Positions 38,947-54,425 of a stretch of DNA of 64,000 nt are shown here, one piece after another. Each line of letters opens with the position of its first letter. Positions within the stretch are counted from its first letter, which is position 1. A program made the translations under genes and the position numbers. Location: contig NZ_CP032482.1 of NCBI RefSeq assembly GCF_003600645.1, forward strand, positions 3,720,001 through 3,784,000, read 5' to 3'. This DNA is from Yersinia rochesterensis (GTDB lineage: Bacteria; Pseudomonadota; Gammaproteobacteria; Enterobacterales; Enterobacteriaceae). Below the pieces are notes generated by a model that ran no database searches, was not told the origin of the DNA, and saw nothing but the letters and a program-made list of their open reading frames with translations.

Positions 38947-39023
38947 GGCCCCTTAGCTCAGTTGGTTAGAGCACGCGACTCATAATCGCTTGGTCACTGG
39001 TTCAAGTCCAGTAGGGGCCACCA
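38947..39023 (+). tRNA. ileX: tRNA-Ile2 (anticodon CAU)
   Basis: 77 nt including an encoded 3' CCA. The acceptor GGCCCCT pairs with AGGGGCC, the D arm is AGCTCAGTTGGTTAGAGC, the anticodon loop CTCATAA carries CAT at 38981-38983 and the T arm is CTGGTTCAAGTCCAG with one mismatched pair position. The sequence matches E. coli ileX, which also lies downstream of rpoD. The C of the anticodon is converted to lysidine by TilS so that the tRNA reads AUA. Automated tools may label it Met. Its 3' half is the integration site of the satellite; the present 3' end is the copy brought by the element. Confidence 0.95.
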
Positions 39024-39040
39024 AACAAAACAAGGAGTTA
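38978..39040 (+). repeat. Left attachment site (tRNA end)
   Basis: The block from actcataatc (38978) to ccaccaaa (39025) is repeated without change at 54363-54410 (48 bp). After one C/T mismatch a further 14 bp (aaaacaaggagtta) also match. It covers the anticodon loop to the end of the tRNA. Confidence 0.95.
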
Positions 39041-39067
39041 CGTTAATAGCGTAACTCCTTTGTTATT
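39032..39067 (+). terminator. Element-borne terminator of the tRNA transcript
   Basis: AAGGAGTTACG (39032-39042) pairs with CGTAACTCCTT (39050-39060), an 11-bp perfect stem, followed by TGTTATTT. It lies inside the satellite, just past the restored tRNA end. It replaces the chromosomal terminator now at 54417-54452. Confidence 0.85.
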
Positions 39068-39100
39068 TCTGGGATACTTATGGGATACCTCAGAGCGGTA
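39068..39100 (+). repeat. 33-bp direct repeat, left copy (arm-type site candidate)
   Basis: The 33-bp sequence starting tctgggatacttatgggata and ending gcggta is identical at 54234-54266. Within it GGGATAC occurs twice 11 bp apart, about one helical turn. Position near both ends suggests integrase arm-type binding sites. Confidence 0.8.
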
Positions 39101-39168
39101 ACATCTGATATCAAAAATTTTTAAACTGGGTTCGAAAAGCGAGATATCTTGTTCATATTTCCTAAAGT

Positions 39169-39615
39169 TTAAAAACCACCGTGACGCTCAGAATAATTAA
39201 CGAAGTCTTTGATGTGGGCTTCTAGTTTTTTGACATACACCTCATCATTCCAATTGTTTTCGGTGTAATGAAATCCATCAGTGGACTCATAGCTTCCACC
39301 TTTATCACCAGTAAAATACTTTAGAAAACAGAACGTCCCATCGAAATTCTTACCTTCTCCAAAGAAAAGGTCATCGTATCCACCATTTCCATACTTGAGC
39401 TTAAAGGTAATGTATCTGTCCGAAGACTCAACTTTTACATTTATATTTCTTTCAACCAGTTCTTTTTCATGCTCTTTGACTATTGGAATAAGTCGAAGAA
39501 TTATTTCTTTCAGGTATTCCCTTCTCTGGGCAACTAGTTCTTTTCGAGACTCTTCGGCTGAATTTGATTTAAAGATACTTTGATCTATTTTGTTGTAAAA
39601 ATCGTCACTACTCAT
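39169..39615 (-). CDS. Hypothetical protein (148 aa), satellite cargo
   Basis: 148 residues from ATG 39615 (MSSDDFYNKIDQ), preceded by AAGGGG at 7 nt; an ATG at 39633 would add six residues. I do not recognise the family. The protein is soluble and charged: a helical N-terminal half (SRKELVAQRREYLKEIILRL) and a beta-rich centre with Gly/Asp/Phe (YGNGGYDDLFFGEG). Base composition is clearly AT-richer than the packaging genes. It is the last gene before the tRNA attachment site, a position where satellites often keep accessory genes such as anti-phage functions. Any such function here is a guess from location. Confidence 0.65.
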   Translation of the reverse strand: MSSDDFYNKIDQSIFKSNSAEESRKELVAQRREYLKEIILRLIPIVKEHEKELVERNINVKVESSDRYITFKLKYGNGGYDDLFFGEGKNFDGTFCFLKYFTGDKGGSYESTDGFHYTENNWNDEVYVKKLEAHIKDFVNYSERHGGF

Positions 39616-39710
39616 GTCAATCCCCTTGAACATTAAGGCAAACTATCGCTGCTTATACAATATACCCATTTCACTATTACAACGATAGCTCACTAATAGT
39701 TGATACCTCC

Positions 39711-40328
39711 TTACATCTGATCTTCGGCATGAATACCCGCGGATATTAGTGCTCCACCTATTCGGCGCTTGCCATATCCAAGAGGTACCGGATTACCTTG
39801 AGCGATTGAGTTGACCGGGCCGCCGAATGCATAAGATGGTTTATTTTCCGGCGATTCTCGCATTGCTAGCCCACCTTGCTGGGGCGAGAGCATTTGAACT
39901 ACACCACCCAGCGCCATAGAAGCGCCGGCCATCATCATGCCATTGGCAACACCCGCCGACATTAAAGCCGCTGTTGGGTTCCACAATGTTGCTGCAATAA
40001 GAATCGCTCCCAAGATAGTTTGAAACAGTCCGGCCTTTTTACTACCAATAATGATCGGAGCAATTCTTATTTCTTCATTGCCAATATTAAATTCAAGCTC
40101 ATCTTGAGAAATATTACGTTTGCCTTTAAAAACAGCGAACGTAAGCCCTTTATCTTTTGCTTCATTAAGAAAACGCTCAAAGCCCGGCAATAATACACAA
40201 CAGGCTTTAATAGCTTCTTGCGTCGTACTTGCCGCAAAACGGAAAACACCGTCTTTATTTTCGGTGAATTGTTTCAGTGGGCCATAAAGCCGGATTGTTT
40301 TTACCTGTTCGTTATTTAATGAGTTCAT
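39711..40328 (-). CDS. Lambda gpI-like tail-tip assembly protein
   Basis: 205 residues. It starts with a ubiquitin-like beta region (VKTIRLYGPLKQF...TQEAIKACCVLLPGFERFL). A Gly/Ala-rich hydrophobic segment follows (FQTILGAILIAATL to MMMAGASMALGGVVQMLSP). The end, QGNPVPLGYGKRRIGGALIS, parallels lambda gpI, where the same order (AQGN.LPVLYGEMRVGS..VS) occurs. Lambda gpI acts at initiation of the tail tip with gpJ, gpL and gpK. Here it stands alone: no other tail gene is in the element. It begins 14 nt after terL with its own GGAG site, so it is expressed with the packaging genes. Confidence 0.88.
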   Translation of the reverse strand: MNSLNNEQVKTIRLYGPLKQFTENKDGVFRFAASTTQEAIKACCVLLPGFERFLNEAKDKGLTFAVFKGKRNISQDELEFNIGNEEIRIAPIIIGSKKAGLFQTILGAILIAATLWNPTAALMSAGVANGMMMAGASMALGGVVQMLSPQQGGLAMRESPENKPSYAFGGPVNSIAQGNPVPLGYGKRRIGGALISAGIHAEDQM

Positions 40329-40342
40329 ACTGTTTTCTCCTG

Positions 40343-42004
40343 TTAAATTCCGTCAAAGGCTTTAAGCCGCTGTTGCTGTTCTTCGCTCAAGGTGTACGCA
40401 AAGTCTTCATGTTCAATCTGGTAAGTGCCAAAGCTCATCAGGAAGGCGATCGCCGGGTCTATCTTATTGGCGGCCTTCTTCTTGTTCGGCTTGATATTGG
40501 CGTTGGCGTCGGTTTCCATCACAACGTTGCTCATCGCCCAAGCCAAGACCGGATCGCCGTTGTGCTGAATTACCTTGCGATTAACGAACACCTCGGCAGA
40601 CTTGGCTACCGGGCTAAATTTCATGTAGGTTTGCGGGAACGGCTCGACATCCAGACCGGCACCTTGTAGCTGTGTTCTAAGATGGGTGGCGTTCCACGTA
40701 TCGAATCCCACCAGCTTGATACCGAATCGCTGACTGTCTGCCAGTACATCATCACGGATGCGGTCATAATCGATACAGTCGCCCGGTGTGGTGCGTATCC
40801 AGCCACTTTTAACCCATTGCCTATATATGGCCCGGTTCTTATTGGCGGCATTATTCAACTGGGCTTCGGGGATATAGTGGCGGGTAAGCAGCAATACACG
40901 GTTCTCAACCGGGAACGAGTAGCACACACTGGTAATATCACTGGTTGATGACAGGTCTAACCCGGCGTAACACTCCAGACCGGCTAAATCATCCTCACTA
41001 TAATCGGCTTTACAGGCATCCCATGCTCCGGCTCCCATCCACGGTGTTTCACCCTGACACCAGATATTAAAGCGCTTAGTCAGCATCTCGACCCATTGAG
41101 AGGGAATGCCCCGCGCCTTATTGATGGTGTCAGTCAGTGCCGTAACATCAACAGAAACACCCAGATTAGGGTTAGCCTTAATCCATTGTTCGGGCTGCTC
41201 AACTTCGCTCTCGTCGTCCAGTTCGTAGATTAGGGCAAATAAAGATTCATTTTGTTCTTCACCGGCCAATATCTGGCAGCAATAGTCATAATGTTGCTTA
41301 CAGGCTGAAACCACGTTGCTACCCGCAGTGGTGATAGCAAAGAGTATCCCCTCTGGCCGGGCACCCATTCCCAACTCAAGCGCCGAATAAACGGCGTTAT
41401 CCGGGTGAAGATGGTACTCATCCACCACCGCCAGACTGGGGTTAGTCCCTTCAATGGTCGAGGCTTTGGAGGCCAGTGGCTTTAATAGGCTGTTGGTTTT
41501 GGCATAAATCAGTTTGTGCTGTTGAATAGTGAGGCGCTTTCTCAAGGGCTTTGAGATAAGGCTCATCTGACGGGCATCATCAAACACGATACGCGCCTGA
41601 TCACGACTCACGGCGGCGGTATAGATATCTTGCTGGCCCGGTTCCATCACCAGAAACCAGTTAGCCAGAATAGCGGCCACGGTTGATTTGGCATTCTTAC
41701 GGGGTACCTGAATGTAAGCACTACGGTACTTCCTGCGGCCTGTAGCTGCCACCTTGAACCCCAACAAACAGGCAAAGGCAAATTGTTGCCAAGGCTCCAG
41801 CACGATAGGCTGACCCCGTAGCGGGCCTTTTACGTGGGGGCAGAGGTGAGAGAAGGCAATAAAGCGCTCTACGGTGGCACCATCGAACGTATAAAGCAGG
41901 TTATTCAAGTCATTAAAGTACCGCTCAACGGCCTGTTTTAGCCGCGCACAGGCTGGTATCTTGCCGTTTTTAACGTCTAGTGCGTACTGATTATAGGCTG
42001 TCAA
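40343..42004 (-). CDS. Large terminase subunit (HK97 type)
   Basis: 553 residues from TTG 42004, behind GAGGAGG at 9 nt and overlapping the terS end by 14 bp. Another TTG at 42058 is in frame but overlaps terS by 68 bp. The N-terminus then reads (L)TAYNQYALDV, the usual start of this family. Walker A is PRKNAKST (about 101-108) and Walker B is LAVVDEYH (Asp195, Glu196). The C-terminal nuclease half contains YAGLDLSSTSD, with an early catalytic Asp. The enzyme pumps DNA into preformed heads and cuts the concatemer. In a cf-PICI it packages the satellite's own genome. Confidence 0.94.
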   Translation of the reverse strand: MTAYNQYALDVKNGKIPACARLKQAVERYFNDLNNLLYTFDGATVERFIAFSHLCPHVKGPLRGQPIVLEPWQQFAFACLLGFKVAATGRRKYRSAYIQVPRKNAKSTVAAILANWFLVMEPGQQDIYTAAVSRDQARIVFDDARQMSLISKPLRKRLTIQQHKLIYAKTNSLLKPLASKASTIEGTNPSLAVVDEYHLHPDNAVYSALELGMGARPEGILFAITTAGSNVVSACKQHYDYCCQILAGEEQNESLFALIYELDDESEVEQPEQWIKANPNLGVSVDVTALTDTINKARGIPSQWVEMLTKRFNIWCQGETPWMGAGAWDACKADYSEDDLAGLECYAGLDLSSTSDITSVCYSFPVENRVLLLTRHYIPEAQLNNAANKNRAIYRQWVKSGWIRTTPGDCIDYDRIRDDVLADSQRFGIKLVGFDTWNATHLRTQLQGAGLDVEPFPQTYMKFSPVAKSAEVFVNRKVIQHNGDPVLAWAMSNVVMETDANANIKPNKKKAANKIDPAIAFLMSFGTYQIEHEDFAYTLSEEQQQRLKAFDGI

Positions 42005-42344
42005 GGGCGTCTGCCTCCTCAACTTCCACCGGATTACGGCGGCGAGATACCGGATCAAAGCCCAGCAACGACGACATTTTTATCATCACTTTTTCGGCGT
42101 CAGACTTGGCGCTAAGTGAAGGGTTGCGGCTTTCGCTACCCTGACTATTCACAATGCTGAACCCGCGCTTTGCCAGATCTGCCACGGCTTTGCGGTACAT
42201 CGAATAATTGACACAGTACAATTCTAGGTTGCGCCAATCGGCATCGATCAGATCGCCACGTTCCATTAATTGTTTTGCTCTCGCCTTCCATTCCCCGGTA
42301 GCTATTTCATCGAGGTAGGCCAGTGGTTTAGGTGCTCTTGCCAT
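41991..42344 (-). CDS. Small terminase subunit (P27 family)
   Basis: 117 residues. ATGEWKARAKQLMERGDLID then WRNLELYCVNYSMYRKAVADL is typical of P27-type TerS proteins: a DNA-binding N-terminus with helices for oligomerisation. It recognises the packaging start site and hands DNA to TerL. The upstream 127 bp between it and the small 50-aa gene are non-coding and may include cos. Confidence 0.9.
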   Translation of the reverse strand: MARAPKPLAYLDEIATGEWKARAKQLMERGDLIDADWRNLELYCVNYSMYRKAVADLAKRGFSIVNSQGSESRNPSLSAKSDAEKVMIKMSSLLGFDPVSRRRNPVEVEEADALDSL

Positions 42345-42471
42345 AACTGCTTATTTCCCATGAGTTTTATTTTCAAAAAAAATACCGCACGTAAAAATTT
42401 GAGGGGGCGGGTGGTTCCAGCGGAGAGGGGTTTTGTCCTCAAACCTCCCCCACCCCTTGCCCTGCGCCTCG
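42345..42471 (-). other. Candidate cos packaging site
   Basis: The only sizeable gap in the packaging operon. On the minus strand it has strand-asymmetric G/C runs (GGGGTGGGGGAGG, then ACCACCCGCCCCC) followed by an A/T-rich tract (TCAAATTTTTACGTGCGG). HNH-containing cos phages of the HK97 type usually carry cos beside terS and HNH. The nick site cannot be set from sequence alone. Confidence 0.4.
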
Positions 42472-42624: not shown

Positions 42625-42630
42625 GATTTG

Positions 42631-43074
42631 TTACTCCTTACCCGCCTCGTATATCCAGTCCCAACGGTGGGAGGCTTCTTCCTCTTGGGGCTTGAACTTA
42701 CCGGCTTTACGCTGCTGTTTGGTTAGCGGGTCTTGGGTGGTGGTCTTACGGCTATGGCAGCTGGCGCACAACCCCTGATGATTGCTGGCGGGCCAGAACA
42801 ACACATCACTCTCGCCATCAATCGGGATGATGTGATCAACTATCTTGGCCGGGATATAGAGGCCTTTCTTCTCACAATCAACGCATAAGGGATTGGCTTT
42901 CAGGTACATCAGACGGTATTTACCCCAACGGTTGGAATAGCCGCGTGAGGTGCGGGTTCCCCGGTTGGCTGTGACCTGTGCACTGGCTTCACGTTTATGC
43001 TCGGCACAGCGGCCAGCCTTCACACGTGCGCGGCATCCGGGATAACTACAACGTTTCAATGGATGGACTGGCAT
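42631..43074 (-). CDS. HNH endonuclease
   Basis: 147 residues from ATG 43074 (MPVHPLKRCSYPGCRARVKA), which overlaps the connector stop codon as TAATG. An N-terminal zinc knuckle-like CSYPGC and CAEH precede the HNH fold: VDHIIPIDGES supplies the catalytic His, and ASNHQGLCASCHSRK supplies Asn, His and zinc Cys residues. In HK97-type phages HNH proteins act with terminase in cos cleavage and head morphogenesis. cf-PICIs carry this gene next to terS. Confidence 0.93.
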   Translation of the reverse strand: MPVHPLKRCSYPGCRARVKAGRCAEHKREASAQVTANRGTRTSRGYSNRWGKYRLMYLKANPLCVDCEKKGLYIPAKIVDHIIPIDGESDVLFWPASNHQGLCASCHSRKTTTQDPLTKQQRKAGKFKPQEEEASHRWDWIYEAGKE

Positions 43075-43376
43075 TAGTAAATCCCCGGTTCGCGATATAC
43101 CGTCCACAAGTGAGATATGGTCAATGGGACTTCTTTAATCGTAAGGTCAGCAACCATTGATCTACCTTCATAAAGTTGTGTCACATACATCAAACAACCA
43201 ACTTTCATTGCTGACGTAAATTCCAATCCATCATCAAAACGTTTACCAATGTGACGCTGGCAAACCTCCAGCGCAGCATCGATATAAATTTGGATCAGAC
43301 TGTCTTCCTCAGTGAATTCAGGTTCAATCCGACACTGAAGTTTCACATCTTCCAACGTAATTAATGAATTACTCAT
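43074..43376 (-). CDS. Head-tail connector protein (HK97 gp6-like)
   Basis: 100 residues. ITLEDVKLQCRIEPEFTEED followed by SLIQIYIDAALEVCQRHIGK is the all-helical gp6 (Phage_connect_1) pattern. It forms the ring below the portal that closes filled heads and offers the docking surface for a tail. It overlaps the portal stop by 4 bp (ATGA-type coupling). No further stopper or tail-completion gene is visible, so other joining proteins would have to come from the helper. Confidence 0.88.
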   Translation of the reverse strand: MSNSLITLEDVKLQCRIEPEFTEEDSLIQIYIDAALEVCQRHIGKRFDDGLEFTSAMKVGCLMYVTQLYEGRSMVADLTIKEVPLTISHLWTVYREPGIY

Positions 43377-44575
43377 ATAACTTCCTTATCGTCAGCTGCT
43401 TTCACCTGTACAGTCTGTTTCCATGCCTGACTGAATTCCTCACCACCGGCATACGCTGGCATCCCCTCACGTTCACGCGCTTCATTCGGAGACATCACAC
43501 CGGATTTAATGGCGGTTTCGTAACTGCGAAAACGTTCTTGAGGATTGGCCCGTAGCAAGTCGGCAGTGTCAAACTCCACCTGATAGCGAACCTGAACCGG
43601 GTGACTGGCCACCAGAAGAGAAGCTTTAACCTGTTGCTCAAAATTAGTTAGCCAGGGGCGTAAGGTTTGAGACAGAAAAGCACGGCTGGCCTCGCTGAAA
43701 TTGCTGTAGGTGCTGTTGGAATACTCTTGCAGGAATATTGGGCTGATATTGAATATCCGGGCGATGTCTTCAATGGTGAAGCGGCGAGAAGCCAACCACT
43801 CAGCATCCTGATTGCTCATGCCTAACTGCTCATACTTCATGCCACCTTCGATAATCGGCGTTTTACCGGCATTGCGTGCGCCTTTGTAGCGCTCCAGTGC
43901 TTCCAGTGCCTTAGCGCCTTTTGGCCCGTCCAACCAGTCACCGGTTGTCAACACGCCGGAAGCCATCAGGCCGTTATTCATCACCGACGAGCCATGACGT
44001 TGTTGAGCAAGTCCCAGCCCAACCGTTTCACGACAGACAGTGATCGGAGAACGCCCAAGGAAACCATCTTCAGTAGCATGTCGCAGATGCAAGATTTCTT
44101 CCTGAAGGTACGTTTTTACCGTGCCGTCCGGGTGCGTAATGGTGTAGGCGAATCGGTGATTGCTCAGACGCTTGGGTACCACGGCGCGAGGTGGGTAAGA
44201 ATGCAGTGATTGCGGCTTGCCATCCTTGCCCCATTCGATAACGGCATAAGCGTTACCATTGAGCAGACAATGACGCATCATCGTGCGTTTGAATTGGTAA
44301 GGGGTCTGGCAGTCATTCGGGTATTCATTCAGCAGGTAATCAACTGGATGCTCCGATAACCATTCTCTTTTCTCATTCTGAACCCGGTACAGGTAACACG
44401 GCATCGAGGCCACGGCTTCACTGATAACGGTCACAGCATTCATAACAGCCGGCAGAGATTCGGCAGTAGCAGCAGACACATGTTCACCAGCCCCCGTATT
44501 GGGAATACCAGCCAGTGCCATAAACTCATCAATGGTCATTGAGCGGTTTTCGGTCTTGCGTTTGAACGGCCACAT
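43373..44575 (-). CDS. Portal protein (HK97 family)
   Basis: 400 residues. SLPAVMNAVTVISEAVASMP near residue 42, LNEYPNDCQTPYQFKRTMMR and the GNAYAVIEWGKDGKP block are typical of HK97 portal proteins. The C-terminus is helical, ending in the crown region. The dodecameric portal nucleates head assembly and is the DNA entry channel. It is tightly coupled to the protease (2 nt upstream) and connector (4-bp overlap). Confidence 0.95.
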   Translation of the reverse strand: MWPFKRKTENRSMTIDEFMALAGIPNTGAGEHVSAATAESLPAVMNAVTVISEAVASMPCYLYRVQNEKREWLSEHPVDYLLNEYPNDCQTPYQFKRTMMRHCLLNGNAYAVIEWGKDGKPQSLHSYPPRAVVPKRLSNHRFAYTITHPDGTVKTYLQEEILHLRHATEDGFLGRSPITVCRETVGLGLAQQRHGSSVMNNGLMASGVLTTGDWLDGPKGAKALEALERYKGARNAGKTPIIEGGMKYEQLGMSNQDAEWLASRRFTIEDIARIFNISPIFLQEYSNSTYSNFSEASRAFLSQTLRPWLTNFEQQVKASLLVASHPVQVRYQVEFDTADLLRANPQERFRSYETAIKSGVMSPNEAREREGMPAYAGGEEFSQAWKQTVQVKAADDKEVI

Positions 44576-44576: not shown

Positions 44577-45134
44577 TCACAACCCCGCCAGATAAGCCCA
44601 ATGGGAACGCAGAGACAGATCCACCAGCTCCGGGTGTTGGGCTAACAGTGAACGCTTGGCTATCTGAACATCCGTTTCACGGTAGGCCGGTAAGCTGGTC
44701 ACGGTAATTTCCCGTAGTTCAGCCGCCAACACCGTACGGACATAAGGCTGTTTGGTACTGTCCCACTGGTCTTTTAATGCACGGAAACCAAAGCTCATGC
44801 CTGATATATCGCCACGCTCAACCATGGTCAGCACATCACGGCCTAACTGGGTATCGGGTGGGGTCAATTCAAAACGCAGACCGGTAGCATCCTCACTCAA
44901 TACGAGGGTGTTTGACTGGGTGCGACCTAACAGCGCGGTATAGTCATGCTCAAACAAAGCGCGAACATCGGTACCAGCTGCAAGGCTGGCTTTAAAGGCA
45001 TTTGGGGCAAACTGCTCGACAAACTCATCCCACAGCACCTCTGAGCGGCTATTCCATTTCACGGCATAACCCACTAACTTTTTATCGCTGGTGGATAAGC
45101 TGGCGGTGCGGATCTCAAAATCGGTATCTTTCAT
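44577..45134 (-). CDS. Prohead maturation protease (HK97 gp4 type)
   Basis: 185 residues. LVGYAVKWNSRSEVLWDEFV and FAPNAFKASLAAG give the herpesvirus-protease-like fold. The likely catalytic His is in FEHDYTALLGRT and the Ser in ERGDISGMSFGF. It cleaves the delta domain from the major capsid protein during head maturation. It lies between portal and major capsid, the standard HK97 order, with 42 bp to the capsid gene. Confidence 0.94.
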   Translation of the reverse strand: MKDTDFEIRTASLSTSDKKLVGYAVKWNSRSEVLWDEFVEQFAPNAFKASLAAGTDVRALFEHDYTALLGRTQSNTLVLSEDATGLRFELTPPDTQLGRDVLTMVERGDISGMSFGFRALKDQWDSTKQPYVRTVLAAELREITVTSLPAYRETDVQIAKRSLLAQHPELVDLSLRSHWAYLAGL

Positions 45135-45176: not shown

Positions 45177-46349
45177 TTACTCTGCGATTTCGAGAACTTT
45201 GATCGCGTTGGAGTCCACCAGCCCACCACCCAGATACTTATCAGTGTGAACCTTGTAGAAGCCCGGTTCGGTGATATTGTCAGGACGGGTGCGGGTGCCT
45301 GTTTCATGATCGACGATGAAATAGCCGCGCTTGAAGTCACCTATAGCAATTACTGGTTTACCCGGTTCAGCATCGGGCATGTTTTCCAGATAGCGCACTG
45401 GATGGCCCAGCAACATATCCGGATCGCCAGCTTGCAGACGGTCACGCCAGATATAATCACCATTACCGTTTTTAATCTTTTGCAGCATGGCAGCACTATT
45501 GGAGTTCATCACCCAAACAGCATTTTTGCGGTAGCGGCGGCGGAGTTTAAAGACCAGATCAATCAATTCGTCAGCGGTAGGGTCATTACCGGCAGTAACC
45601 ATTTTTTCCAGCGTTCCGAATGGGCGAGTACGGTCACCGGTTGCAGCACGAGGGTAAGACAGGAAGCCTTTAGCCTTTTTGGTACCATCACCGTTAACTA
45701 AGTCGGTTTCTTCGGTCTCAATAAAGGTGTCGCTGATTTCTTCGGTCAACCAGCCCATGATATCCACATCACTAAAATCAAGGATTTCCTGCGTGGTTTT
45801 CGGGTAAGCATAGATTGGGTTCAGCTTGATACTGACCTCTTCCAGCTTAGGTGTCGCGGTTTCGGTACGGGCTTCACCTTCTACGCCTCGACCTACCGCC
45901 GCGCCACCCACGGACACAAGTTTTTTATACTCGTTGGATTTGGTGGTTTTGACGGTGCAAATTTGGCGCATTTCTGACTCATCAGCCAACATGCGCATAA
46001 TTTCACTGTCCAGCTCAGGGATAACCGAATAGCCGCCGCTCTCATTCACGGTAGTGGATAACATGCGGGTTTCGCCGGTCATGATGTAATGGCGTAACTC
46101 GTCATTGGTCACTTTTTTACCATCGTCTACAGGCTTGGCTTTACCGGCCTGTGTGCGCTCTTCATCAGCAAGGGATTCATAACGGGTGATTTCTGTAAAT
46201 AGGGCTTCTGCCTGAGCACGGATTTCATCAAACTGAGTGGCTTCTTCGGGGGTAAGGCTGCGTTTTTCATCTTCGGTCTTGGTCAGCAGTGAGCGCATTT
46301 GTGTGGCTAACTCGGCTTTCTTCTGGCGTAACTCTAACAATTTTTTCAT
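45177..46349 (-). CDS. Major capsid protein (HK97 fold)
   Basis: 390 residues. The first 100 or so form the coiled-coil delta (scaffold) domain (LLELRQKKAELATQMRSLL...). After it, TRMLSTTVNESGGYSVIPEL marks the usual protease cut region. E-loop, P-domain (LVNGDGTKKAKGFLSYP) and A-domain (AVWVMNSNSAAMLQKIKNGN, ...MLLGHPVRYLENMP) follow. It forms the icosahedral shell. It is the first gene of the leftward head-packaging operon; a minus-strand terminator lies upstream, so the operon needs its own promoter. Confidence 0.96.
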   Translation of the reverse strand: MKKLLELRQKKAELATQMRSLLTKTEDEKRSLTPEEATQFDEIRAQAEALFTEITRYESLADEERTQAGKAKPVDDGKKVTNDELRHYIMTGETRMLSTTVNESGGYSVIPELDSEIMRMLADESEMRQICTVKTTKSNEYKKLVSVGGAAVGRGVEGEARTETATPKLEEVSIKLNPIYAYPKTTQEILDFSDVDIMGWLTEEISDTFIETEETDLVNGDGTKKAKGFLSYPRAATGDRTRPFGTLEKMVTAGNDPTADELIDLVFKLRRRYRKNAVWVMNSNSAAMLQKIKNGNGDYIWRDRLQAGDPDMLLGHPVRYLENMPDAEPGKPVIAIGDFKRGYFIVDHETGTRTRPDNITEPGFYKVHTDKYLGGGLVDSNAIKVLEIAE

Positions 46350-46526: not shown

Positions 46527-46630
46527 TAAGCATAGGTAAGCATGAGGACAAAACATTTACAATTCTATTCTTACCTTACGAATATCAAGGTATTATGAGA
46601 CTGTTTCAGTTGAGGCTCATGAGAGGAAAT

Positions 46631-47110
46631 ATGACAGTATTTATCACAGTATTTTCTGGTGTTTTGGTATACGTGATTGGACAAATTATTATGAAGTTAA
46701 TAATAGATCCGATTAACGACTTAAAAAAAGCCATATCGAAAATAGTTTATGATTTGGTTTTTTATGCCAATGTTTTGGGAAACCCAAAAGGGCCAGACAA
46801 CGAGAACATGGTCTCTACATGTAAAATAATGAGACAGCATTCATCTATATTGCATGCCGCAACTCACTTAGTACCAGCTTATAAATATATATACAAACCT
46901 TTCGGAATTCCCAGTCCAGAAGAAATAAAAAAAGCGACTAACAAATTGATATATCTTTCAAATGGGTATGATGGCCCATTAACCAATCAAGGAATACTAA
47001 ACATATATACAATGCAAGAGGTGCAGTTGTGTTTGGGTGTACCCATTCCAGAGGGAGAGCGATTAAATCCTGACGATAAGATAATGTTCATTAGGGGGAA
47101 AAACCAATAA
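46631..47110 (+). CDS. Hypothetical membrane-anchored protein, satellite cargo
   Basis: 159 residues from ATG 46631, with GAGAGGAAAT in front; the frame is open from 46595. One N-terminal transmembrane helix (MTVFITVFSGVLVYVIGQII) precedes a cytoplasmic domain beginning DPINDLKKAISKIVYDLVFY and containing LIYLSNG. It resembles a widespread uncharacterised single-span family with the pattern FVxGQ...DPI..LK; function unknown. It is the only longer plus-strand gene between the two leftward operons, is AT-rich and stands alone, all signs of cargo. A role in superinfection or phage defence is possible but not shown by sequence. Confidence 0.72.
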   Translation: MTVFITVFSGVLVYVIGQIIMKLIIDPINDLKKAISKIVYDLVFYANVLGNPKGPDNENMVSTCKIMRQHSSILHAATHLVPAYKYIYKPFGIPSPEEIKKATNKLIYLSNGYDGPLTNQGILNIYTMQEVQLCLGVPIPEGERLNPDDKIMFIRGKNQ

Positions 47111-47152: not shown

Positions 47153-47413
47153 TTATTGTTCGCTCATCCACTCAGGTGGTTTTGGCATCCGATCCCGATA
47201 TTCCTGCAAATGCTCGATAAGTGCGTCCAACTGCTCACGATTCGTCGCTAGTATTTCCTCTGAAAACGTACTACGAACAAAATCATGAGAGTCAATCCAT
47301 AAAAATGCACCATCTTTCAACAATTGCCGATAATCAGTAGTATGCGTCGTACATATATCAGCGATGCCATAATAATCATGATGTTCTTTGATGTCTTGTA
47401 AAGTCACAGGCAT
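47153..47413 (-). CDS. Small hypothetical protein (86 aa)
   Basis: 86 residues from ATG 47413 with a strong AAGGAGG 5 nt upstream. It is acidic and soluble: VTLQDIKEHHDYYGIADICT, a central LLKDGAFLWIDSHDFVRS, and a helical LDALIEHLQEYRDRMPKPPE. I do not recognise it. It converges on the 159-aa membrane protein gene and lies next to the candidate replication origin. Confidence 0.65.
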   Translation of the reverse strand: MPVTLQDIKEHHDYYGIADICTTHTTDYRQLLKDGAFLWIDSHDFVRSTFSEEILATNREQLDALIEHLQEYRDRMPKPPEWMSEQ

Positions 47414-47679: not shown

Positions 47680-49407
47680 TTACTCTGTACCTCCTGTTGC
47701 AGCCGGTAGCCACTCATCGGCATCATCAGCCAGCCGGATGTTAGAGCGCATATTTCCTTTGGTGCTTTTCTTCCTGATGTACTCTTTTCCATACTCAGCC
47801 ATTGAACCCGGCATATCAGTAGCGAACCGGTTAAGTGAGATCGGCTTACTCAACCCATTACTCTGCATATAAGCAAGATAGGCGTGGTACAGGTACTTCC
47901 GTGGGCTGAACGGTATAATGCTAGCATTGCCGATAAACAAGCCGTCACACTGCACCGATGCCATTAGGTAGCCGCAGAAGTCCACCAGCGAGTCACCTTC
48001 ACGCTTAATAGCCAACGCCTCTTCTGATTTCTGCTGTTCGAACAAAAGCCGTTTAGCTTCTCCCTGATCTGCAAAGCGTGTCAGTAAGTGGCGAATGATA
48101 ACCGGCAGCTCTGCCTCTATCTTTTCTGACAACATCGGATCACGCTCATTCTCTGGCACAACCTGCGAGAAGTTGAAAATAACCCGACGCCGGGATATAC
48201 CTCCGCTTCGGTCGCTAAATGACATGGCGTTATTGTTCACGGCCAAAATAACAGCCGGGATCCGTGTCGAGTAAGGCGCTTTGTGTTTCGGGTCTATCGC
48301 GACCTTATCCCCACCGGTGATAGCTTTAATCCCTGCCCCGTCACCGGCATAGCGCGACATATCAGGCATGATGATCAGAGAATACCCCACTATCAGCGCC
48401 CTTTCCCTTGGCTCTTCGAGTGCCTTCATACTGGCTGATACGGTGTTGGCTTTCCCTGCCAGCATGGTGCAGATCTCCGCCAGTACACTTTTACCACTAC
48501 CACCCGCGCCGGTTATCTCAAGAAATAGCTGCCAGTCATACCGGTTCGCCATCACCATATACAACGCAGCCAGCACTCGATCGGCTTTCCGGGCATTACC
48601 GGCCGTTGACCAGTTAAGCCACTTCCAGAACGCGGGAGAGTGGGTGGCCAGTGATTCCCCTTCCTCTGCCTGGATAAACTCCACATCACTGGCGATCAAT
48701 AACCAGTCCTCTTGCCGGTGTTCTCTGAATACCCCCTCTCGGGTATCAAATACACCATTGCTAAAGCCAATCAGATTACGTGCAGTGGTACCCATTATTG
48801 GCAGGCTCAATTTCATGGTATCAACGGCGTTCTTCATAGCCGGCATGGAGTAAGGAACCCTTGATTCCATAAAGATAGCCGCCATTTCCCGCGACAGCGC
48901 CTTATCTGAAACAGGTTGCCAGATTATGCCGTTGTAATGATGTACAGCATCCGAATCACCATGTACGGCTAAATCACCGTCATAACGGGCCAAAAGTACC
49001 TCACCGCGCTGGCTTGGCCCCATTTGGTTAAGTGCCGGGATTACAGCCGGTTCATCAGCGGGAACAACATTAAACAGGGAGTTAATGCGGTCGGCATTGG
49101 CTAATACAGCCACCAGATCAGGACGGCTGATAAACTCAAGTACCACCGCTTCTCGTTTCTCCCGTGCGTATTCCGGTGATTTGGCTGAATGGAAGCCATT
49201 GTCAGCTAACCACTCCGGCGTAACTGTCCCAATAGCGAAAGAACCCAGTCTTATCGCCAGACAATTGAGAGGCGTCCCCGTTGTGGTTTGCAATATGGCT
49301 TTTGCTATCACAGCTTTCTCAATCGGGCGACCATTAACCCAACGATAGACGCAGGAAAACAGTTCATTGGGCCATTGGTTAACACTAACCTTCTGTGGCT
49401 TACTCAT
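47680..49407 (-). CDS. SF3 helicase / primase C-terminal domain replication protein
   Basis: 575 residues. The SF3 helicase core has Walker A GAGGSGKS (residues 300-307), Walker B SLIIMPDMSR (about 343-352) and motif C AVILAVNNNA. This is the phage P4 alpha / D5 family. The first 290 residues include the D5 N-terminal region (LIGFSNGVFDTREGVF). I see no CHC2 zinc finger and no clear TOPRIM signature, so primase activity is uncertain. It is shorter than P4 alpha. It is the likely satellite replication initiator and unwinds DNA at the iterons directly downstream. Confidence 0.92.
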   Translation of the reverse strand: MSKPQKVSVNQWPNELFSCVYRWVNGRPIEKAVIAKAILQTTTGTPLNCLAIRLGSFAIGTVTPEWLADNGFHSAKSPEYAREKREAVVLEFISRPDLVAVLANADRINSLFNVVPADEPAVIPALNQMGPSQRGEVLLARYDGDLAVHGDSDAVHHYNGIIWQPVSDKALSREMAAIFMESRVPYSMPAMKNAVDTMKLSLPIMGTTARNLIGFSNGVFDTREGVFREHRQEDWLLIASDVEFIQAEEGESLATHSPAFWKWLNWSTAGNARKADRVLAALYMVMANRYDWQLFLEITGAGGSGKSVLAEICTMLAGKANTVSASMKALEEPRERALIVGYSLIIMPDMSRYAGDGAGIKAITGGDKVAIDPKHKAPYSTRIPAVILAVNNNAMSFSDRSGGISRRRVIFNFSQVVPENERDPMLSEKIEAELPVIIRHLLTRFADQGEAKRLLFEQQKSEEALAIKREGDSLVDFCGYLMASVQCDGLFIGNASIIPFSPRKYLYHAYLAYMQSNGLSKPISLNRFATDMPGSMAEYGKEYIRKKSTKGNMRSNIRLADDADEWLPAATGGTE

Positions 49408-49742
49408 AGCTGTGGCCTCGCTGACATGGTGAATTTGCCGATCAGCGGGTGATACCAGTATTTGCTACCGTATTTACGCTTAGCCCCCTTGATAACGATC
49501 AGCGCCGCTTCACGGAATTTAGCCTCATGCACTGCGTGACCATTGCCATGACGAACTATCATCACACCACAATTTCTCGCCAGTTCTTCCGCTTTACAGG
49601 TGGATAGCCCCATTTCAGCCGCCAGAGTGGTAAGGGGTGCCATACCTTCCGGTACTGAGCCTTTGCGTTGCATGGCAGCTAAAGCCAGCTCAAGGGCTGC
49701 AACACGCTTTTCCAGCTCGTTAAATTTCAATGTGCTAATCAT
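49404..49742 (-). CDS. Hypothetical protein (112 aa) upstream of primase
   Basis: 112 residues. A short coiled coil (FNELEKRVAALELALAAMQR) is followed by a helix-turn-helix-like segment (PLTTLAAEMGLSTCKAEELA) and a basic tail (KGAKRKYGSKYWYHP). It overlaps the primase start by 4 bp (ATGA), so the two are translationally coupled. A DNA-binding partner of the replication protein is a reasonable guess. I do not know the family. Confidence 0.72.
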   Translation of the reverse strand: MISTLKFNELEKRVAALELALAAMQRKGSVPEGMAPLTTLAAEMGLSTCKAEELARNCGVMIVRHGNGHAVHEAKFREAALIVIKGAKRKYGSKYWYHPLIGKFTMSARPQL

Positions 49743-50041
49743 TTTTTGGCCCCCTTGCGCTTCTCTTGCTCGAACGCAATAGAACTACCATTTTGCTCCA
49801 GTGCTTGGGCCATACGGGGAAGGTGTCTGAGTGCCGAACCTATTAAATGCAGGTCGCGGATAGCTTCTTCCCCTGAATATCCTTCGCTTTCTGAAACTTC
49901 CAGCAGCAGATTGCCGATAACCTGTATCGCAGAATTAATAGCCATGCTGGCACCACAGTAGATATTATTGTGCTCATCTAACTTCTCGTCAGATACCTTG
50001 CTAAAATCATGATTTACCAGAACATGATAAATATCATTCAT
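49739..50041 (-). CDS. Hypothetical protein (100 aa), satellite early operon
   Basis: 100 residues from ATG 50041, with GGAGGGG 7 nt upstream; the frame is open to 50056. Helical and acidic in the middle (SEGYSGEEAIRDLHLIGSAL), basic at the end (FEQEKRKGAKK). It overlaps the next gene by 4 bp and the previous one by 8 bp, forming a compact early operon. Function unknown. Confidence 0.7.
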   Translation of the reverse strand: MNDIYHVLVNHDFSKVSDEKLDEHNNIYCGASMAINSAIQVIGNLLLEVSESEGYSGEEAIRDLHLIGSALRHLPRMAQALEQNGSSIAFEQEKRKGAKK

Positions 50042-50354
50042 GGTCAGCCCCTCCAATCTTGTACTTTTTCGCAGCTACAAGGCGGCGCTGACGCTCATGA
50101 TCGATGTATTCGCAACCCACTGATTCCGCTTCACGTCCAACATTCTCAATGGTTTCCTGCGCCCTGTAGGAGATGAGATTTAGCGCGTCGGCCATCATAT
50201 GCATGCGTTGATAACATTTTGGGGATTCCATCCAGTGCAGCAACAGATCAGTAATGGCTACGATTTCCGACAATGCTTGCTGTGACAGGCAATCCATATC
50301 TTTGATAGCACCGCTCAGTCTGTTTATCTGCTCATTGGGCTTTAGTTCATGCAT
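50034..50354 (-). CDS. Hypothetical protein (106 aa), satellite early operon
   Basis: 106 residues, ATG at 50354 with GAGGAG upstream. All-helical appearance: LSGAIKDMDCLSQQALSEIV, TDLLLHWMESPKCYQRMHMM and SYRAQETIENVGREAESVGC. I do not recognise it. It overlaps both neighbours (8 bp each), which shows it belongs to the leftward operon that ends in the primase. Confidence 0.7.
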   Translation of the reverse strand: MHELKPNEQINRLSGAIKDMDCLSQQALSEIVAITDLLLHWMESPKCYQRMHMMADALNLISYRAQETIENVGREAESVGCEYIDHERQRRLVAAKKYKIGGADHE

Positions 50355-50550
50355 GGCTGATCTCCTCGCCTGAAAGGTTGATCAGGTACTCGGTCACTGA
50401 GTCGGCATACTCCGAAGACATTTCAAGCAGTAATTCAACTTCATGGCCCGGAAGCCCTACCCAAGAATGACGAAGTGCACGAATGACCGCGCTTGCTCTT
50501 TGTGCCTGCTGGAGGGTTACCATAGCCACCGCCATTTCTGATTTACGCAT
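50347..50550 (-). CDS. Small hypothetical protein (67 aa), satellite early operon
   Basis: 67 residues, ATG 50550 behind GAGGT. Helical: AMVTLQQAQRASAVIRALRH, then LELLLEMSS-like acidic helix and YLINLSGEEI. It overlaps the Icd-like gene by 8 bp and the 106-aa gene by 8 bp. Function unknown; such small proteins between Icd-like and primase genes are common in P4-like and PICI elements. Confidence 0.68.
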   Translation of the reverse strand: MRKSEMAVAMVTLQQAQRASAVIRALRHSWVGLPGHEVELLLEMSSEYADSVTEYLINLSGEEISHA

Positions 50551-50737: not shown

Positions 50738-50772
50738 AGCTACCTCGATACTTATTCTATCGTTGGTGGTAA

Positions 50773-50807: not shown

Positions 50808-50930
50808 GTCATTTCAAGGTGTATTTCACCTATGTTTTTAACGCTACACATAAGTGAAATACACTTCAAGCCTTTTTTTATTATTATTTCTGCGTATACT
50901 GACATACACCTAATATACGGAGATCCAGTA

Positions 50931-51597: not shown

Positions 51598-51804
51598 TCA
51601 CACAGTTTGAGTCTGACGAACTGATGCAAGATAGGCGTCAAGGTCTGACTTATGATAAATGACCTTCTTTTTTCCTACCTTGTAGAACGGGATCGATACG
51701 CAGCCGGTACTAGCCCAGTTAGCTAAAGTTTGGGGGCTAACACCAAGCTCTGCAGCAGCTTCTTTGCGAGTAAGTTTTTTGTCTATTGTTTGAATTAATT
51801 GCAT
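51598..51804 (-). CDS. alpA: AlpA-family transcriptional regulator
   Basis: 68 residues from ATG 51804; a GTG three codons upstream is in frame. The MerR-like helix-turn-helix (KKLTRKEAAAELGVSPQTLA then NWASTGCVSIPFYKVGKKKV and YHKSDLDAYLAS) is the HTH_17/AlpA type. In Gram-negative PICIs AlpA activates the satellite operon after helper induction, and in P4-like elements it promotes excision. An 8-bp inverted repeat lies directly upstream of the start. Confidence 0.9.
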   Translation of the reverse strand: MQLIQTIDKKLTRKEAAAELGVSPQTLANWASTGCVSIPFYKVGKKKVIYHKSDLDAYLASVRQTQTV

Positions 51805-51807
51805 AAG

Positions 51808-51841
51808 TATCACCGTGTAATGTTAGTTAGTTTCGGTGATA
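51808..51841. promoter_or_regulatory. Inverted repeat upstream of alpA, candidate operator
   Basis: TATCACCG (51808-51815) and CGGTGATA (51834-51841), a perfect 8-bp inverted repeat with 18 bp between, next to the alpA start. A second palindrome TTGACgaGTCAA lies at 51917-51928 in the same 172-bp gap. Both may be regulator sites. Confidence 0.55.
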
Positions 51842-51976
51842 ATATTATTTATTGCGGGATTATTAGGTAAGTCAGCGCAACTGGTTAAGTGGGGCTTTAA
51901 CGAGTTTTATATTTAATTGACGAGTCAATCGAGTATGAAGCGCGTTCGCTGGTATGCTAACGCGTCTCTGGACATC

Positions 51977-52783
51977 TTACTCTTTGATAACTAACTTAAA
52001 CTTTCTATTTTTCGGCGTAATATTTGGATTCAACCCGGATTCAGAAAGCCAGCTTTTTATTGCACCAGAAGCGGGATTATCGTTCCGTTTCTCTCGAAAA
52101 TAATGGAAAAGTTCATCAGCCATCCCCCCTTGACTAGCGTTTGGATATTTATCCCAAGTATCTTTTGCTATTTTTATCGCTGTATTTTTGTGAGGGCTTA
52201 TGTTTCCCTTTCCTGCCTTTCTTCTATCTTCACTGATTATTTCTTTCTTTTTTATAGCATTTATTGGATTTGTTAAAAGTAAATTAATTGTCATTTTATC
52301 AATAATTACATTTAATTCAGATGAGATATAGTCACAACCTGCTGACTCAAGAATTAACTTGGCCTTCATTATTGCGTTTAATTCTTCATTTAATAGAGCA
52401 CTAATATATTGATTGGCTAATTTCTTCTTGTTCATACTTTCGTCTAATGCTCGTAATTCAGAAATTGAATTAACTTGATTAATACTCTTTCCCTTTGAGA
52501 ACTCACTGTTTTCTTTTATTTTTTTCGCTGCATCAGAAAGAGAATTCATCAATAAAGGTATAATAACCTCTTCTTTCCCTCCAAATAAATTATCTACTGC
52601 TTCGTTCGAAATAATATTTGAAATTGGAATAACATAGACATAACCATATTTTTTTATGGTCGAGTTAATCCCATTAACATCCTGAACATCCATATAATCC
52701 ATAAATTTATTAGCATCTTCCTCATTCATTTGAGAAAGCAAATCATCAATATTCTCATGTAATTCTGGTTTTTGATTGTTCAT
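51977..52783 (-). CDS. Hypothetical protein (268 aa) coupled to integrase
   Basis: 268 residues. ATG 52783 overlaps the integrase stop (ATGA) and has AAGGA 7 nt upstream. It is AT-rich (Lys/Asn/Ile-rich protein), unlike the integrase. The N-terminal half is helical and acidic (ENIDDLLSQMNEEDANKFMD). The C-terminal 80 residues are basic with a pattern KNTAIKIAKDTWDKYPNASQ and SGAIKSWLSESGLNP that looks like a helix-turn-helix domain of phage accessory proteins. Function unknown; coupling with int hints at excision or regulation. Confidence 0.75.
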   Translation of the reverse strand: MNNQKPELHENIDDLLSQMNEEDANKFMDYMDVQDVNGINSTIKKYGYVYVIPISNIISNEAVDNLFGGKEEVIIPLLMNSLSDAAKKIKENSEFSKGKSINQVNSISELRALDESMNKKKLANQYISALLNEELNAIMKAKLILESAGCDYISSELNVIIDKMTINLLLTNPINAIKKKEIISEDRRKAGKGNISPHKNTAIKIAKDTWDKYPNASQGGMADELFHYFREKRNDNPASGAIKSWLSESGLNPNITPKNRKFKLVIKE

Positions 52784-54201
52784 GATAGATTCCTTTTTTC
52801 TTTTACCAATGAGAAAAGTAATTTACGTTTTTCGTCATCGCTCATATTGGAAAGAACTGCTAGTAAATTAGCATTAATGCCATCAGATTTTTCTACCAGC
52901 CCTGCATGCTCCAATATCGCTCGCTCAACTTTTCTGGCTGGCTCCTGCAATTCATCAGCCCCAAAATGTAAGTAGCCTTGGGTTACATCAGCGCTTCGTA
53001 ATGTGCGATGGTTCATCAACCGCTTAAGAATATATGACCCAACACCCACCAGCTCCGCTACAGTGCCAAACGTACGCCGCGCATCATGCCACTTGAAAGG
53101 TATTGGCAATAATCCGTCAGGATTAGGAGAAGGGATTGTAGCTTCCGTTATTCTGGCTATTATCCGGCGTGGTTCAGTGATAATTCCTTTCTGGCCGGGA
53201 AATACATAATGTTGTTCGCCTAATTTGAGCTTGAGCCGCCTACGGAAAAGGTTTAGCAACGTGTCAGTAATTGGTAGCTCAAGCGGATCGCCATTTTTGG
53301 TAGTATCTATCCAGAAGAAGCGCCCACCAACATTTACCCGATCCCATGTCAGATTAAATACTTCTGATTTTCTTAGGCCCGTAAAAAGCGCCATTTCAAT
53401 AGCATCGCAGACCGACAAAGCCACATCATCCCTCTCGTCTGCTGATATATTTCTTACTTGGTCAACAGCACTCAGCCAACGGCCAAGATCATAAGTTCTG
53501 ATTCGCTCTGTTTTTCTTACTGTTCCATGCCACTGGCGTTTAGTGCTGAGAACCATCGTCGGCGGGTCTGGTAAGAGGGTTTTACCTTCCTTATCACGAT
53601 AGTGGTCATGGGAGAAGCGATAAACAGCCCTTAGCGCCCTAGCCCATAGATCCGCTTGTGCCCGACTCCCTGACCCCACACCGGCTCGGAGAAGCGACTT
53701 ATCTTTACCGAACCAAACGGAACCTTGAGTAACTGCTTTATGCCTAGCCTCAACTCGCTCACGGCTAATATTAGCCATGGGCTGCTTCATCCAATCACCA
53801 GAGAAGTTGCCAAGAATAGAACGGTATTGTTTTGCCGTGACAGGTTTCAGGCGGTGGCCGCGATTATCGATGTAGGTTTGTATAGCATCTTCCAGTGTGA
53901 CCTTGCTCATTGCATGAACACGACGGACATCATTGGGATTTTTGCCATTGGTGGCCACTTCACCAAGCAGCTCTAGGGCCTTAGCTCTGGCGTTCTCGAT
54001 ACTGAGATCAGGAAAACGGCCAAGAGTTGCCCGGATAAACTTTCCATTCCGTTTACGGGAGATGCAGAAACTCTTCACGCCAGAAGCGCCAACGCGCAGG
54101 ATAAGACCATTAACGGCGGTATCCCTGTACTCCAGTCTTCCACCAGCAGGATCTGGAGGCAGGGCCGCTATGCTGGCTTTGGTAAACTTAAAATGATTCA
54201 C
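52780..54201 (-). CDS. int: Tyrosine-type site-specific integrase
   Basis: 473 residues. An N-terminal arm-binding DUF4102-like domain (KASIAALPPDPAGGRLEYRD) is followed by a core-binding SAM-like domain and the catalytic domain. Catalytic residues: Arg277 (TGLRKSE), His372 and Arg375 (WHDARRTF), His398 (LMNHRT) and Tyr410 (TQGYLHF). All are present, so the enzyme looks active. It catalyses recombination between attP and the tRNA-Ile2 end. The gene is 161 bp from the right attachment site and reads into the element. Confidence 0.96.
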   Translation of the reverse strand: MNHFKFTKASIAALPPDPAGGRLEYRDTAVNGLILRVGASGVKSFCISRKRNGKFIRATLGRFPDLSIENARAKALELLGEVATNGKNPNDVRRVHAMSKVTLEDAIQTYIDNRGHRLKPVTAKQYRSILGNFSGDWMKQPMANISRERVEARHKAVTQGSVWFGKDKSLLRAGVGSGSRAQADLWARALRAVYRFSHDHYRDKEGKTLLPDPPTMVLSTKRQWHGTVRKTERIRTYDLGRWLSAVDQVRNISADERDDVALSVCDAIEMALFTGLRKSEVFNLTWDRVNVGGRFFWIDTTKNGDPLELPITDTLLNLFRRRLKLKLGEQHYVFPGQKGIITEPRRIIARITEATIPSPNPDGLLPIPFKWHDARRTFGTVAELVGVGSYILKRLMNHRTLRSADVTQGYLHFGADELQEPARKVERAILEHAGLVEKSDGINANLLAVLSNMSDDEKRKLLFSLVKEKRNLS

Positions 54202-54233
54202 AATACGGTATCCCCAAATAATCGCTTGGTCGC

Positions 54234-54266
54234 TCTGGGATACTTATGGGATACCTCAGAGCGGTA
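54234..54266 (+). repeat. 33-bp direct repeat, right copy (arm-type site candidate)
   Basis: Identical to 39068-39100. It lies between the integrase start and the right attachment site. Immediately before it, ataatcgcttggtc (54219-54232) copies 14 bp of the tRNA anticodon region, a partial att-like remnant. Confidence 0.8.
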
Positions 54267-54362
54267 TTAACCAGTATTTATGGGTATTTATACAGTGTCA
54301 AGGATGTTGTTAAACAATTGAAATATAACGAAAGGTAATTATCGGTAACTCATTAATTTGAC

Positions 54363-54425
54363 ACTCATAATCGCTTGGTCACTGGTTCAAGTCCAGTAGG
54401 GGCCACCAAATAAAACAAGGAGTTA
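54363..54425 (+). repeat. Right attachment site (duplicated tRNA 3' end)
   Basis: 48 bp (54363-54410) identical to 38978-39025, then one mismatch and 14 further matches. It lacks the 5' half of the tRNA, so it is a non-functional remnant marking the right boundary of the element. The 350 bp between int and namZ hold only this, the arm repeat and the terminator. Confidence 0.95.

What the first reader, a model, noticed from the sequence alone, without database searches (positions are those of the whole stretch)
38978..54425. A tail-less satellite with its own complete head and packaging genes (cf-PICI type) in Yersinia tRNA-Ile2
Within precise 48-bp tRNA duplications the sequence shows int, AlpA, SF3 helicase/primase and an HK97-type set (capsid, protease, portal, connector, HNH, TerS, TerL). 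Lysis, repressor and tail modules are absent. Known cf-PICIs have this combination and steal only tails. All head genes look full length with active-site residues intact, and junctions are tightly coupled, which argues against simple prophage decay.
Basis: partly seen in the sequence, partly recalled or inferred. Interest (0 to 1): 0.9.

Follow-up and report, generated by a model that had tools for sequence, protein, structure and literature searches.

The report
Head-making phage satellite with tail gene
This looks like a small DNA parasite of bacterial viruses that builds its own virus head and would borrow tails, and it carries one gene for the virus tail tip that such parasites seem to have picked up several times, which hints at how they may handle the tails they take.

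Summary
The island at 38978-54425 is real, its genes look intact, and it fits the cf-PICI kind: integrase, AlpA-like regulator, primase, and HK97-type capsid/protease/portal/adaptor/HNH/TerS/TerL between tRNA duplications. Four of 25 genus genomes show the empty site. None of 56 related loci shows lambda-type J, K, L, M, V or Z genes in the stretch held, which argues against a broken prophage.

Corrections: 39711-40328 (-), directly after TerL, is a full-length lambda gpI-type tail-tip protein (TAP), so the element is not free of tail genes; and it lacks the head-closure gene that 48 of 56 relatives have.

TAP is the new point. It occurs in 9 of 25 Enterobacterales relatives with TerL over 500 aa and in this genome's second island. 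Its tree rejects one satellite clade (AU p=0.002). It is under strong purifying selection (dN/dS about 0.01). At the same tRNA in another species it is kept beside a different head module. A Klebsiella relative has a tape measure gene in that slot.

Best reading: a late tail-tip subunit that the satellite supplies to its helper's tails. Interference with tail assembly is the main rival. No experiment was done.

The parts
38947..39023 (+). tRNA with CAT anticodon; integration target (Ile2 assignment is inferred and recalled, not from a call)
   Evidence: ARAGORN, Rfam
38978..39040 (+). att repeat, left copy (exact for 48 nt, 63 nt at 98%)
39068..39100 (.). 33-nt identical repeat, left copy; probable integrase arm site (inference)
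39169..39633 (-). ORF of 154 aa, no known family; one near-identical database entry (perhaps this protein itself) and a Serratia satellite homologue (L019)
39711..40328 (-). TAP: full-length lambda gpI-type tail-tip assembly/plug protein, 14 nt after the TerL stop, with an AGGAG ribosome site
40343..42058 (-). terminase large subunit
   Evidence: phrog_9; conserved columns kept 295 of 296
41991..42344 (-). terminase small subunit
   Evidence: phrog_83
42390..42456 (.). conserved block between HNH and TerS; candidate cos/packaging region (the two ends of the vB_KppS-Ant record lie in this intergenic stretch)
42631..43107 (-). HNH endonuclease
   Evidence: phrog_144
43074..43376 (-). head-tail adaptor Ad1
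   Evidence: phrog_40
43373..44575 (-). portal protein
   Evidence: phrog_12
44577..45134 (-). prohead protease
   Evidence: phrog_80
45177..46349 (-). HK97-type major capsid protein
   Evidence: phrog_10
46595..47110 (+). ORF of 171 aa, unknown (phrog_7512)
47153..47413 (-). small ORF of 86 aa (phrog_1957, unknown), found in many relatives
47680..49407 (-). D5-type primase/SF3 helicase
   Evidence: Pfam PF08706, PF19263, PF03288; phrog_864
49404..50550 (-). four small ORFs (112, 105, 106, 67 aa), each found in some relatives
51598..51813 (-). AlpA-type regulator (HTH_17; phrog_66 excisionase and transcriptional regulator)
51977..52783 (-). ORF of 268 aa, homologues in Serratia and Kosakonia elements (L019, L066, L033)
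52780..54201 (-). tyrosine integrase
   Evidence: Pfam PF13356, PF00589; phrog_1
54234..54266 (.). 33-nt identical repeat, right copy
54363..54425 (+). att repeat, right copy

Best explanation
A cf-PICI-type phage satellite integrated in a tRNA next to rpoD. Inferred life cycle: after a helper phage is induced, the element excises (int, AlpA-type protein), replicates (primase), builds and fills its own HK97-type heads, and needs tails from a lambda-like siphophage. New part: it makes its own copy of the tail-tip protein gpI (TAP) after TerL, apparently at the end of its head operon. The most likely role is positive and in trans: the satellite TAP enters the helper's tail-tip assembly, binding the central fibre J and the tape measure and relying on helper K, so that tails suit or suffice for the satellite's particles. 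Shown: gene content, boundaries, empty sites, position after TerL, full length, strong purifying selection, a polyphyletic satellite distribution, retention beside different head modules. Inferred: dependence on a helper, acquisition from phages, entry of TAP into tails, benefit to the satellite.
For: Island and head genes intact. TAP is a full-length gpI homologue. It keeps all 35 residues that are at least 95% constant in 51 phage TAPs; 27 satellite rows together keep 922 of 945 against 1764 of 1785 for those phages, 15 of the 23 misses being one truncated copy (three phage rows left out, and the columns were chosen on the phages). Between the two islands of this genome TAP has dN 0.006, dS 0.61. 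It is 87% identical from start to stop codon, dN 0.009, dS 0.86, with a satellite of another species at the same tRNA that has the same backbone (primase region 94%) but a different head module. TAP tree: 10 label changes, at least 7 forced, 0 of 200 bootstrap trees with one origin, one clade rejected p=0.002. A Serratia satellite has two TAPs, 57% alike, nearest to different phage clades. A lambda-like prophage with a TAP 85% identical sits in the same genome. In lambda, gpI plugs the tail tip and contacts gpJ and gpH (PMC10721106, passages).
Against: No expression, induction or particle data. 15 of 25 Enterobacterales relatives with TerL over 500 aa have neither TAP nor tape measure, including the close Y. 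aleksiciae element, so the kind does not need TAP. Genomes whose satellite has TAP do not more often hold another TAP (2 of 8; a ninth was not held) than those whose satellite lacks it (9 of 16, from 18 of the 22 Enterobacterales loci without TAP), which does not support local helper matching. The hydrophobic segment differs between satellite and phage TAPs, but also between phages. A conserved J interface would also serve an inhibitor. In Pasteurellales other single tail or neck genes occur (U-like terminator 10 of 20, neck/gp10-like 12 of 20), so gpI is not the only gene that such elements hold.
Confidence: 0.5

Rival explanations
1. TAP is an interference factor: a near-match gpI that competes for the central fibre J and lowers tail assembly of the helper or of competing phages, in the manner of Tai or Tab.
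For: Tai proteins of PICIs and prophages act on the central tail fibre and block tails (PMC11364771, passages and Discussion section). gpI contacts J in lambda. Genomes with satellite TAP hold another TAP less often, 2 of 8 against 9 of 16, small numbers. 12 of 54 satellite TAP loci also carry a lipoprotein 38-41% identical to one that a phage (L133) encodes upstream of gene I, a possible exclusion protein (role is a guess).
Against: The satellite itself needs tails. TAP sits after the head and packaging genes, not in an early or lysogenic position. Satellite TAPs keep phage-invariant residues about as well as phages do, as expected for working subunits. No PADLOC match (that library is of 2023, the Tai paper of 2024).
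Confidence: 0.27
2. TAP is a hitchhiking phage gene caught by recombination with no role for the satellite.
For: TAP is absent from many relatives.
Confidence: 0.06
3. The island is a decayed prophage whose tail module was lost except for TAP.
For: HK97-type genes are shared with phages.
Confidence: 0.04
4. TAP serves the satellite's own head or neck, for example in place of the missing head-closure protein.
For: The window island has TAP and no head-closure gene.
Against: The second island has both, and so do 8 of the 9 Enterobacterales survey loci with TAP. TAP is also found in satellites with an unrelated capsid fusion and no portal in the stretch held.
Confidence: 0.04

Closest known systems
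[quoted passage not shown] coli, Klebsiella and others
   Same: Integrase, regulator, primase, capsid, protease, portal, connector, HNH, TerS, TerL; no tail or lysis module annotated. 522 of 5426 E. coli genomes match the portal-capsid DNA; the two E. coli islands whose annotation I read, L072 and L073, have the same gene order.
   Different: Carries TAP after TerL, where those two have a small ORF of 63 or 94 aa; lacks the head-closure gene that L072 has (L073 lacks it too). A few E. coli genomes do have TAP beside TerL.
Klebsiella element vB_KppS-Ant (LR881103, 'induced prophage', 16.5 kb) and the K. pneumoniae ATCC 13883 island (L032)
   Same: Same head module and order; a tail gene in the slot directly after TerL.
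   Different: The slot holds a 765-aa tape measure protein (phrog_2854), not TAP.
Pseudomonas satellite AH14b (PMC4936722, passages seen)
   Same: A satellite with a tail assembly protein I 71-74% identical to the two of its helper AH14a, next to a lipoprotein gene.
   Different: Said to use the helper's capsids and has a P4-like primase; a different satellite kind, in which TAP was noted as a single case.
Lambda gpI / phrog_32 tail assembly proteins
   Same: Full-length homologue, including the plug region.
   Different: Encoded by an island in which no K or J was found.
Tai and Tab tail-assembly inhibitors (PMC11364771)
   Same: Carried by satellites or prophages and aimed at tail assembly.
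   Different: No sequence comparison made; TAP is a homologue of a tail component.

Membership tests
cf-PICI | Own capsid, protease, portal and head-tail connector genes (list in PMC10690885, passage) | tested here: met
   head-closure gene missing, as in 8 of 56 relatives
cf-PICI | Own TerS, TerL and HNH | tested here: met
cf-PICI | AlpA homologue and Pri-Rep (signature genes listed in PMC10448857, passage) | tested here: met
   AlpA by HTH_17 and phrog_66, no AlpA-named Pfam model matched
cf-PICI | No tail genes of its own; tails come from the helper | tested here: inconclusive
   No J/K/L/M/H/V/U/Z homologue in the island, but one tail gene, TAP
cf-PICI | Integrase and discrete integration with att repeats and empty sites | tested here: met
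cf-PICI | Induction by a helper and transfer in own capsids with helper tails | not testable with these tools
   no experiment
Classical PICI (packages into helper capsids) | No own capsid and portal genes | tested here: not met
Decayed prophage | Inactivated or missing genes relative to a full phage with the same head genes | tested here: not met
Lambda gpI family (for TAP) | Profile similarity over the full length | tested here: met
   phrog_32 residues 7-205; PDB 8iyk profile match
Lambda gpI family (for TAP) | Match to Pfam PF06805 above its cut-off | tested here: not met
   window TAP shows no PF06805 hit; a satellite relative scores 18.1 against 23.8
Lambda gpI family (for TAP) | Gene between K and J | tested here: not met
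   lies after TerL
Tai / Tab inhibitors | Blocks tail assembly of infecting phages | not tested
   no Tai or Tab sequence was compared

The most novel reading that the evidence does not exclude
Satellites that make their own heads do not simply take tails as they come: they carry a captured tail-interior gene (gpI plug, occasionally the tape measure) as an exchangeable late cassette that retunes the helper's tails for the satellite, for example which tails it can use or how DNA is ejected. The cassette is passed between satellites with unrelated head types.
Probability: 0.35. Interest if true: 0.8.

Novelty: new variant of a known kind. Interest (0 to 1): 0.6.

Why it matters
cf-PICIs are described as needing only helper tails (PMC10690885, passage), and the interaction with diverse phage tails is reported to set their host range (PMC13345588, passages). 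A tail-tip gene that occurs in several satellite lineages kept apart by the tree, is almost frozen in protein sequence and is found beside different head modules suggests that the satellite has its own say in tail making. That makes a question testable with a single deletion: what decides which tails a satellite head can use.

Tried and rejected
Hydrophobic-segment swap: satellite and phage TAPs often differ most in residues 96-145, which at first looked satellite-specific; many phage-phage pairs differ there as much, so rejected. Local helper matching by co-resident TAP phages: not supported (2 of 8 against 9 of 16), though at least five IMG identifiers (four isolate-type, one metagenome-type) among those I compared hold both a satellite and a phage TAP. 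ORF154 as a defence or lipoprotein gene: no Pfam, PHROG or PADLOC match and one near-identical database entry; left open. TAP as head-closure substitute: disfavoured. The tail assembly chaperone reading of the 116-aa gene after TAP in some satellites rests on a Pfam score below its cut-off and a weak PHROG match in one of two proteins scanned. Promoter and terminator scan: about as many sites as shuffles give. A structure prediction of TAP was not obtained. Searches of the held library for a report of TAP in cf-PICIs turned up only the AH14b satellite for TAP; the two main cf-PICI papers (Alqurainy 2023, He 2025, seen only as references in held papers) are not held, so they may mention it.
Full report
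OBSERVATION. The island lies between direct repeats 38978-39040 and 54363-54425 (63 nt, 98%, exact for 48) that overlap the 3' end of a CAT-anticodon tRNA. Identical 33-nt repeats sit just inside both ends. A search of 25 genus genomes with the left flank, followed by a flank comparison of the loci returned, shows the two flanks contiguous over one repeat copy in four genomes (G007, G010, G011, G024), which fixes the ends. The named genes are there. Over TerL, TerS, portal, protease, capsid, Ad1 and HNH, 804 of 808 columns conserved in relatives are kept (only relatives within a preset length range were aligned, 36 to 51 per gene). Of 20 island proteins scanned with PHROGs, none matched a lysis family.

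The gene at 39711-40328 (-) starts 14 nt after the TerL stop with an AGGAG site. It encodes a 205-aa lambda gpI-type protein (phrog_32, E=1.6e-69; PDB chains of lambda gpI at E=1.6e-69 with a profile of 15 TAPs that includes lambda's own). Pfam's own gpI model does not reach its cut-off. Stop-to-stop frames of the whole island searched one by one with lambda and prophage tail proteins gave no other tail gene and no head-closure gene.

RELATIVES. A portal-based scan of one genome per species gave 56 loci, held up to 10 kb either side. With TerL over 500 aa, TAP was found in 9 of 25 Enterobacterales, 0 of 5 Orbales and 1 of 18 Pasteurellales (there it lies before the protease gene, not after TerL); a tape measure in 1, 0 and 1; neither in 15, 5 and 16. 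The other 8 loci had a broken or missing TerL and neither gene. Pasteurellales also carry a tail-terminator-like (U) gene (10 of 20) and a neck/gp10-like gene (12 of 20). A head-closure homologue is found in 48 of 56. TAP starts 13 to 15 nt after TerL in 7 of 10 elements that have it after TerL, the second island of this genome included; the exceptions are L015 (621 nt, and a shorter TAP of 172 aa), L019 and L025 (overlapping by the first possible start). The Klebsiella island L032 and the induced-prophage record vB_KppS-Ant have a 765-aa tape measure in that slot. In E. coli, 522 of 5426 genomes match the portal-capsid DNA. A search with the DNA of one satellite TAP matched 47 genomes; of the 40 listed, three name a terminase large subunit beside TAP. 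This finds only DNA-similar TAPs.

SAME GENOME. A second island (from C1 3920671 on; its far end was not determined) has TAP 99%, portal 98% and capsid 98% identical in protein, but a different primase and right part, and a head-closure gene. A lambda-like prophage (C1 about 3063806-3106624) has matches to lambda Z, U, V, M, L, K and J, a tape measure by size and place, a TerS-like gene, a protease-capsid fusion, and TAP 85% identical to the island's. Further frames suggest lysis, repressor and integrase genes by place and first residues, but were not scanned against families. It is the natural candidate helper, but nothing shows that it is one. A frame that occurs twice there, probably an insertion sequence, lies just upstream of its TAP.

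DIFFERENT HEADS, SAME TAP. In another species (G004, L375) a satellite at the same rpoD/tRNA site shares the backbone (primase region 94%), and TAP matches at 87% from start to stop codon. Its head genes are a 643-aa protease-capsid fusion and a small gene in the place of TerS; the portal search found nothing in that genome and no TerL match was seen in the 19 kb fetched. In the other direction, the Y. aleksiciae element (L011) shares the head module at 93% but the match stops at 40308, inside the start of TAP, and it has no TAP. Six further IMG/VR contigs combine a primase of this kind with TAP and no portal or TerL of this family in the stretch held; five of them have a frame of 639 to 663 aa that looks like the fusion (L107, L108, L131, L134, L188; L131 scanned: phrog_133, Phage_capsid_4), L130 does not.

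ORIGIN OF TAP. 200 TAP frames of 150-260 aa were labelled by their neighbours: 146 phage (J downstream or K/L upstream), 45 after TerL of this family, 6 with primase only, 3 unknown. One contig appears twice (L084, L340). The Yersinia satellite TAPs are 88-90% identical to a phage TAP and 60-61% to the nearest satellite TAP outside their own group; Hafnia 81 and 71%; Xenorhabdus japonica 87 and 73%. Against this, Kosakonia and Enterobacter satellites form a large satellite group (92% to each other, 76-77% to phages). A quick tree of 80 thinned rows needs 10 label changes, at least 8 forced. A careful tree of 60 rows, after leaving out 8 rows (seven phage, one satellite, mostly long-branched) and thinning 12 phage rows, needs 10, at least 7 forced, and none of 200 bootstrap trees has one origin. 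One clade of all satellites is rejected, p=0.002; that the satellites are one group was asked after the first tree had been seen. Counts of changes cannot tell gain from loss; acquisition from phages is inferred from gpI being part of the phage tail module.

SELECTION. Window against second island: dN 0.0064, dS 0.61; window against G004: 0.0086, 0.86. TerL, portal and capsid between the two islands give ratios of 0.03 to 0.08, the protease 0.10.

MECHANISM. In lambda, a gpI trimer (residues 135-223) plugs the tail-tip lumen, augments sheets of gpJ and supports the gpH coiled coil (PMC10721106, passages). Tape measure and plug, the two genes found in the slot after TerL in Enterobacterales, are both proteins of the tail lumen; the Pasteurellales genes are not. 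No K or J was found in the island, so its TAP would have to act with a helper's. Retained invariant residues and the place after the packaging genes favour a working subunit over a poison, but do not prove it. Two TAPs from different clades in one Serratia satellite fit matching to more than one helper. Co-residence of TAP phages does not support matching.

KNOWN AND NEW. Gene-content definitions of cf-PICI were taken from passages in PMC10690885 and PMC10448857. A TAP in a satellite is known from AH14b (passages), and putative satellites with a tape measure and a baseplate gene are mentioned in PMC10448857. A recurring TAP gene in cf-PICIs was not found in print in the searches listed under Tried and rejected, with the limit that the two defining cf-PICI papers are not held.

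Noticed in passing
L375:11173-13104; L107, L108, L131, L134, L145, L188: A second satellite head type: a protease/capsid fusion of about 640 aa (L131: phrog_133, Phage_capsid_4), a small TerS-like gene and TAP, without TerL or portal in the stretch held; by recall it resembles Gifsy-type phages.
   Followed up: partly
L031, L113-L116, L118-L123, L131: 12 of 54 satellite TAP loci also carry a lipoprotein 38-41% identical to one upstream of gene I in a phage (L133); the Pseudomonas satellite AH14b pairs TAP with a lipoprotein too.
   Followed up: partly
window:38978-39040 and genus genomes: The tRNA site is a hotspot: several genus genomes carry further repeat copies about 5 to 48 kb from the first, i.e. 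other or tandem islands. Only the one in G004 was read.
   Followed up: partly
window:39169-39633: ORF154 is nearly an orphan: one near-identical database entry and a homologue after the double TAP of a Serratia satellite.
   Followed up: partly
L137, L139-L144, L146-L148, L152: Some phages carry two adjacent TAP genes, and AH14a has a second TAP; the reason is unknown.
   Followed up: no
L063:6129-8840; L047:8647-9441: Pasteurellaceae relatives have a 903-aa tape measure between HNH and TerS, and a gpI-like gene between capsid and protease.
   Followed up: no
L069:847-2070 (G000 C1 3070846-3072069): A frame present twice in the prophage region, probably an insertion sequence, lies just upstream of TAP in the resident lambda-like prophage.
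   Followed up: no
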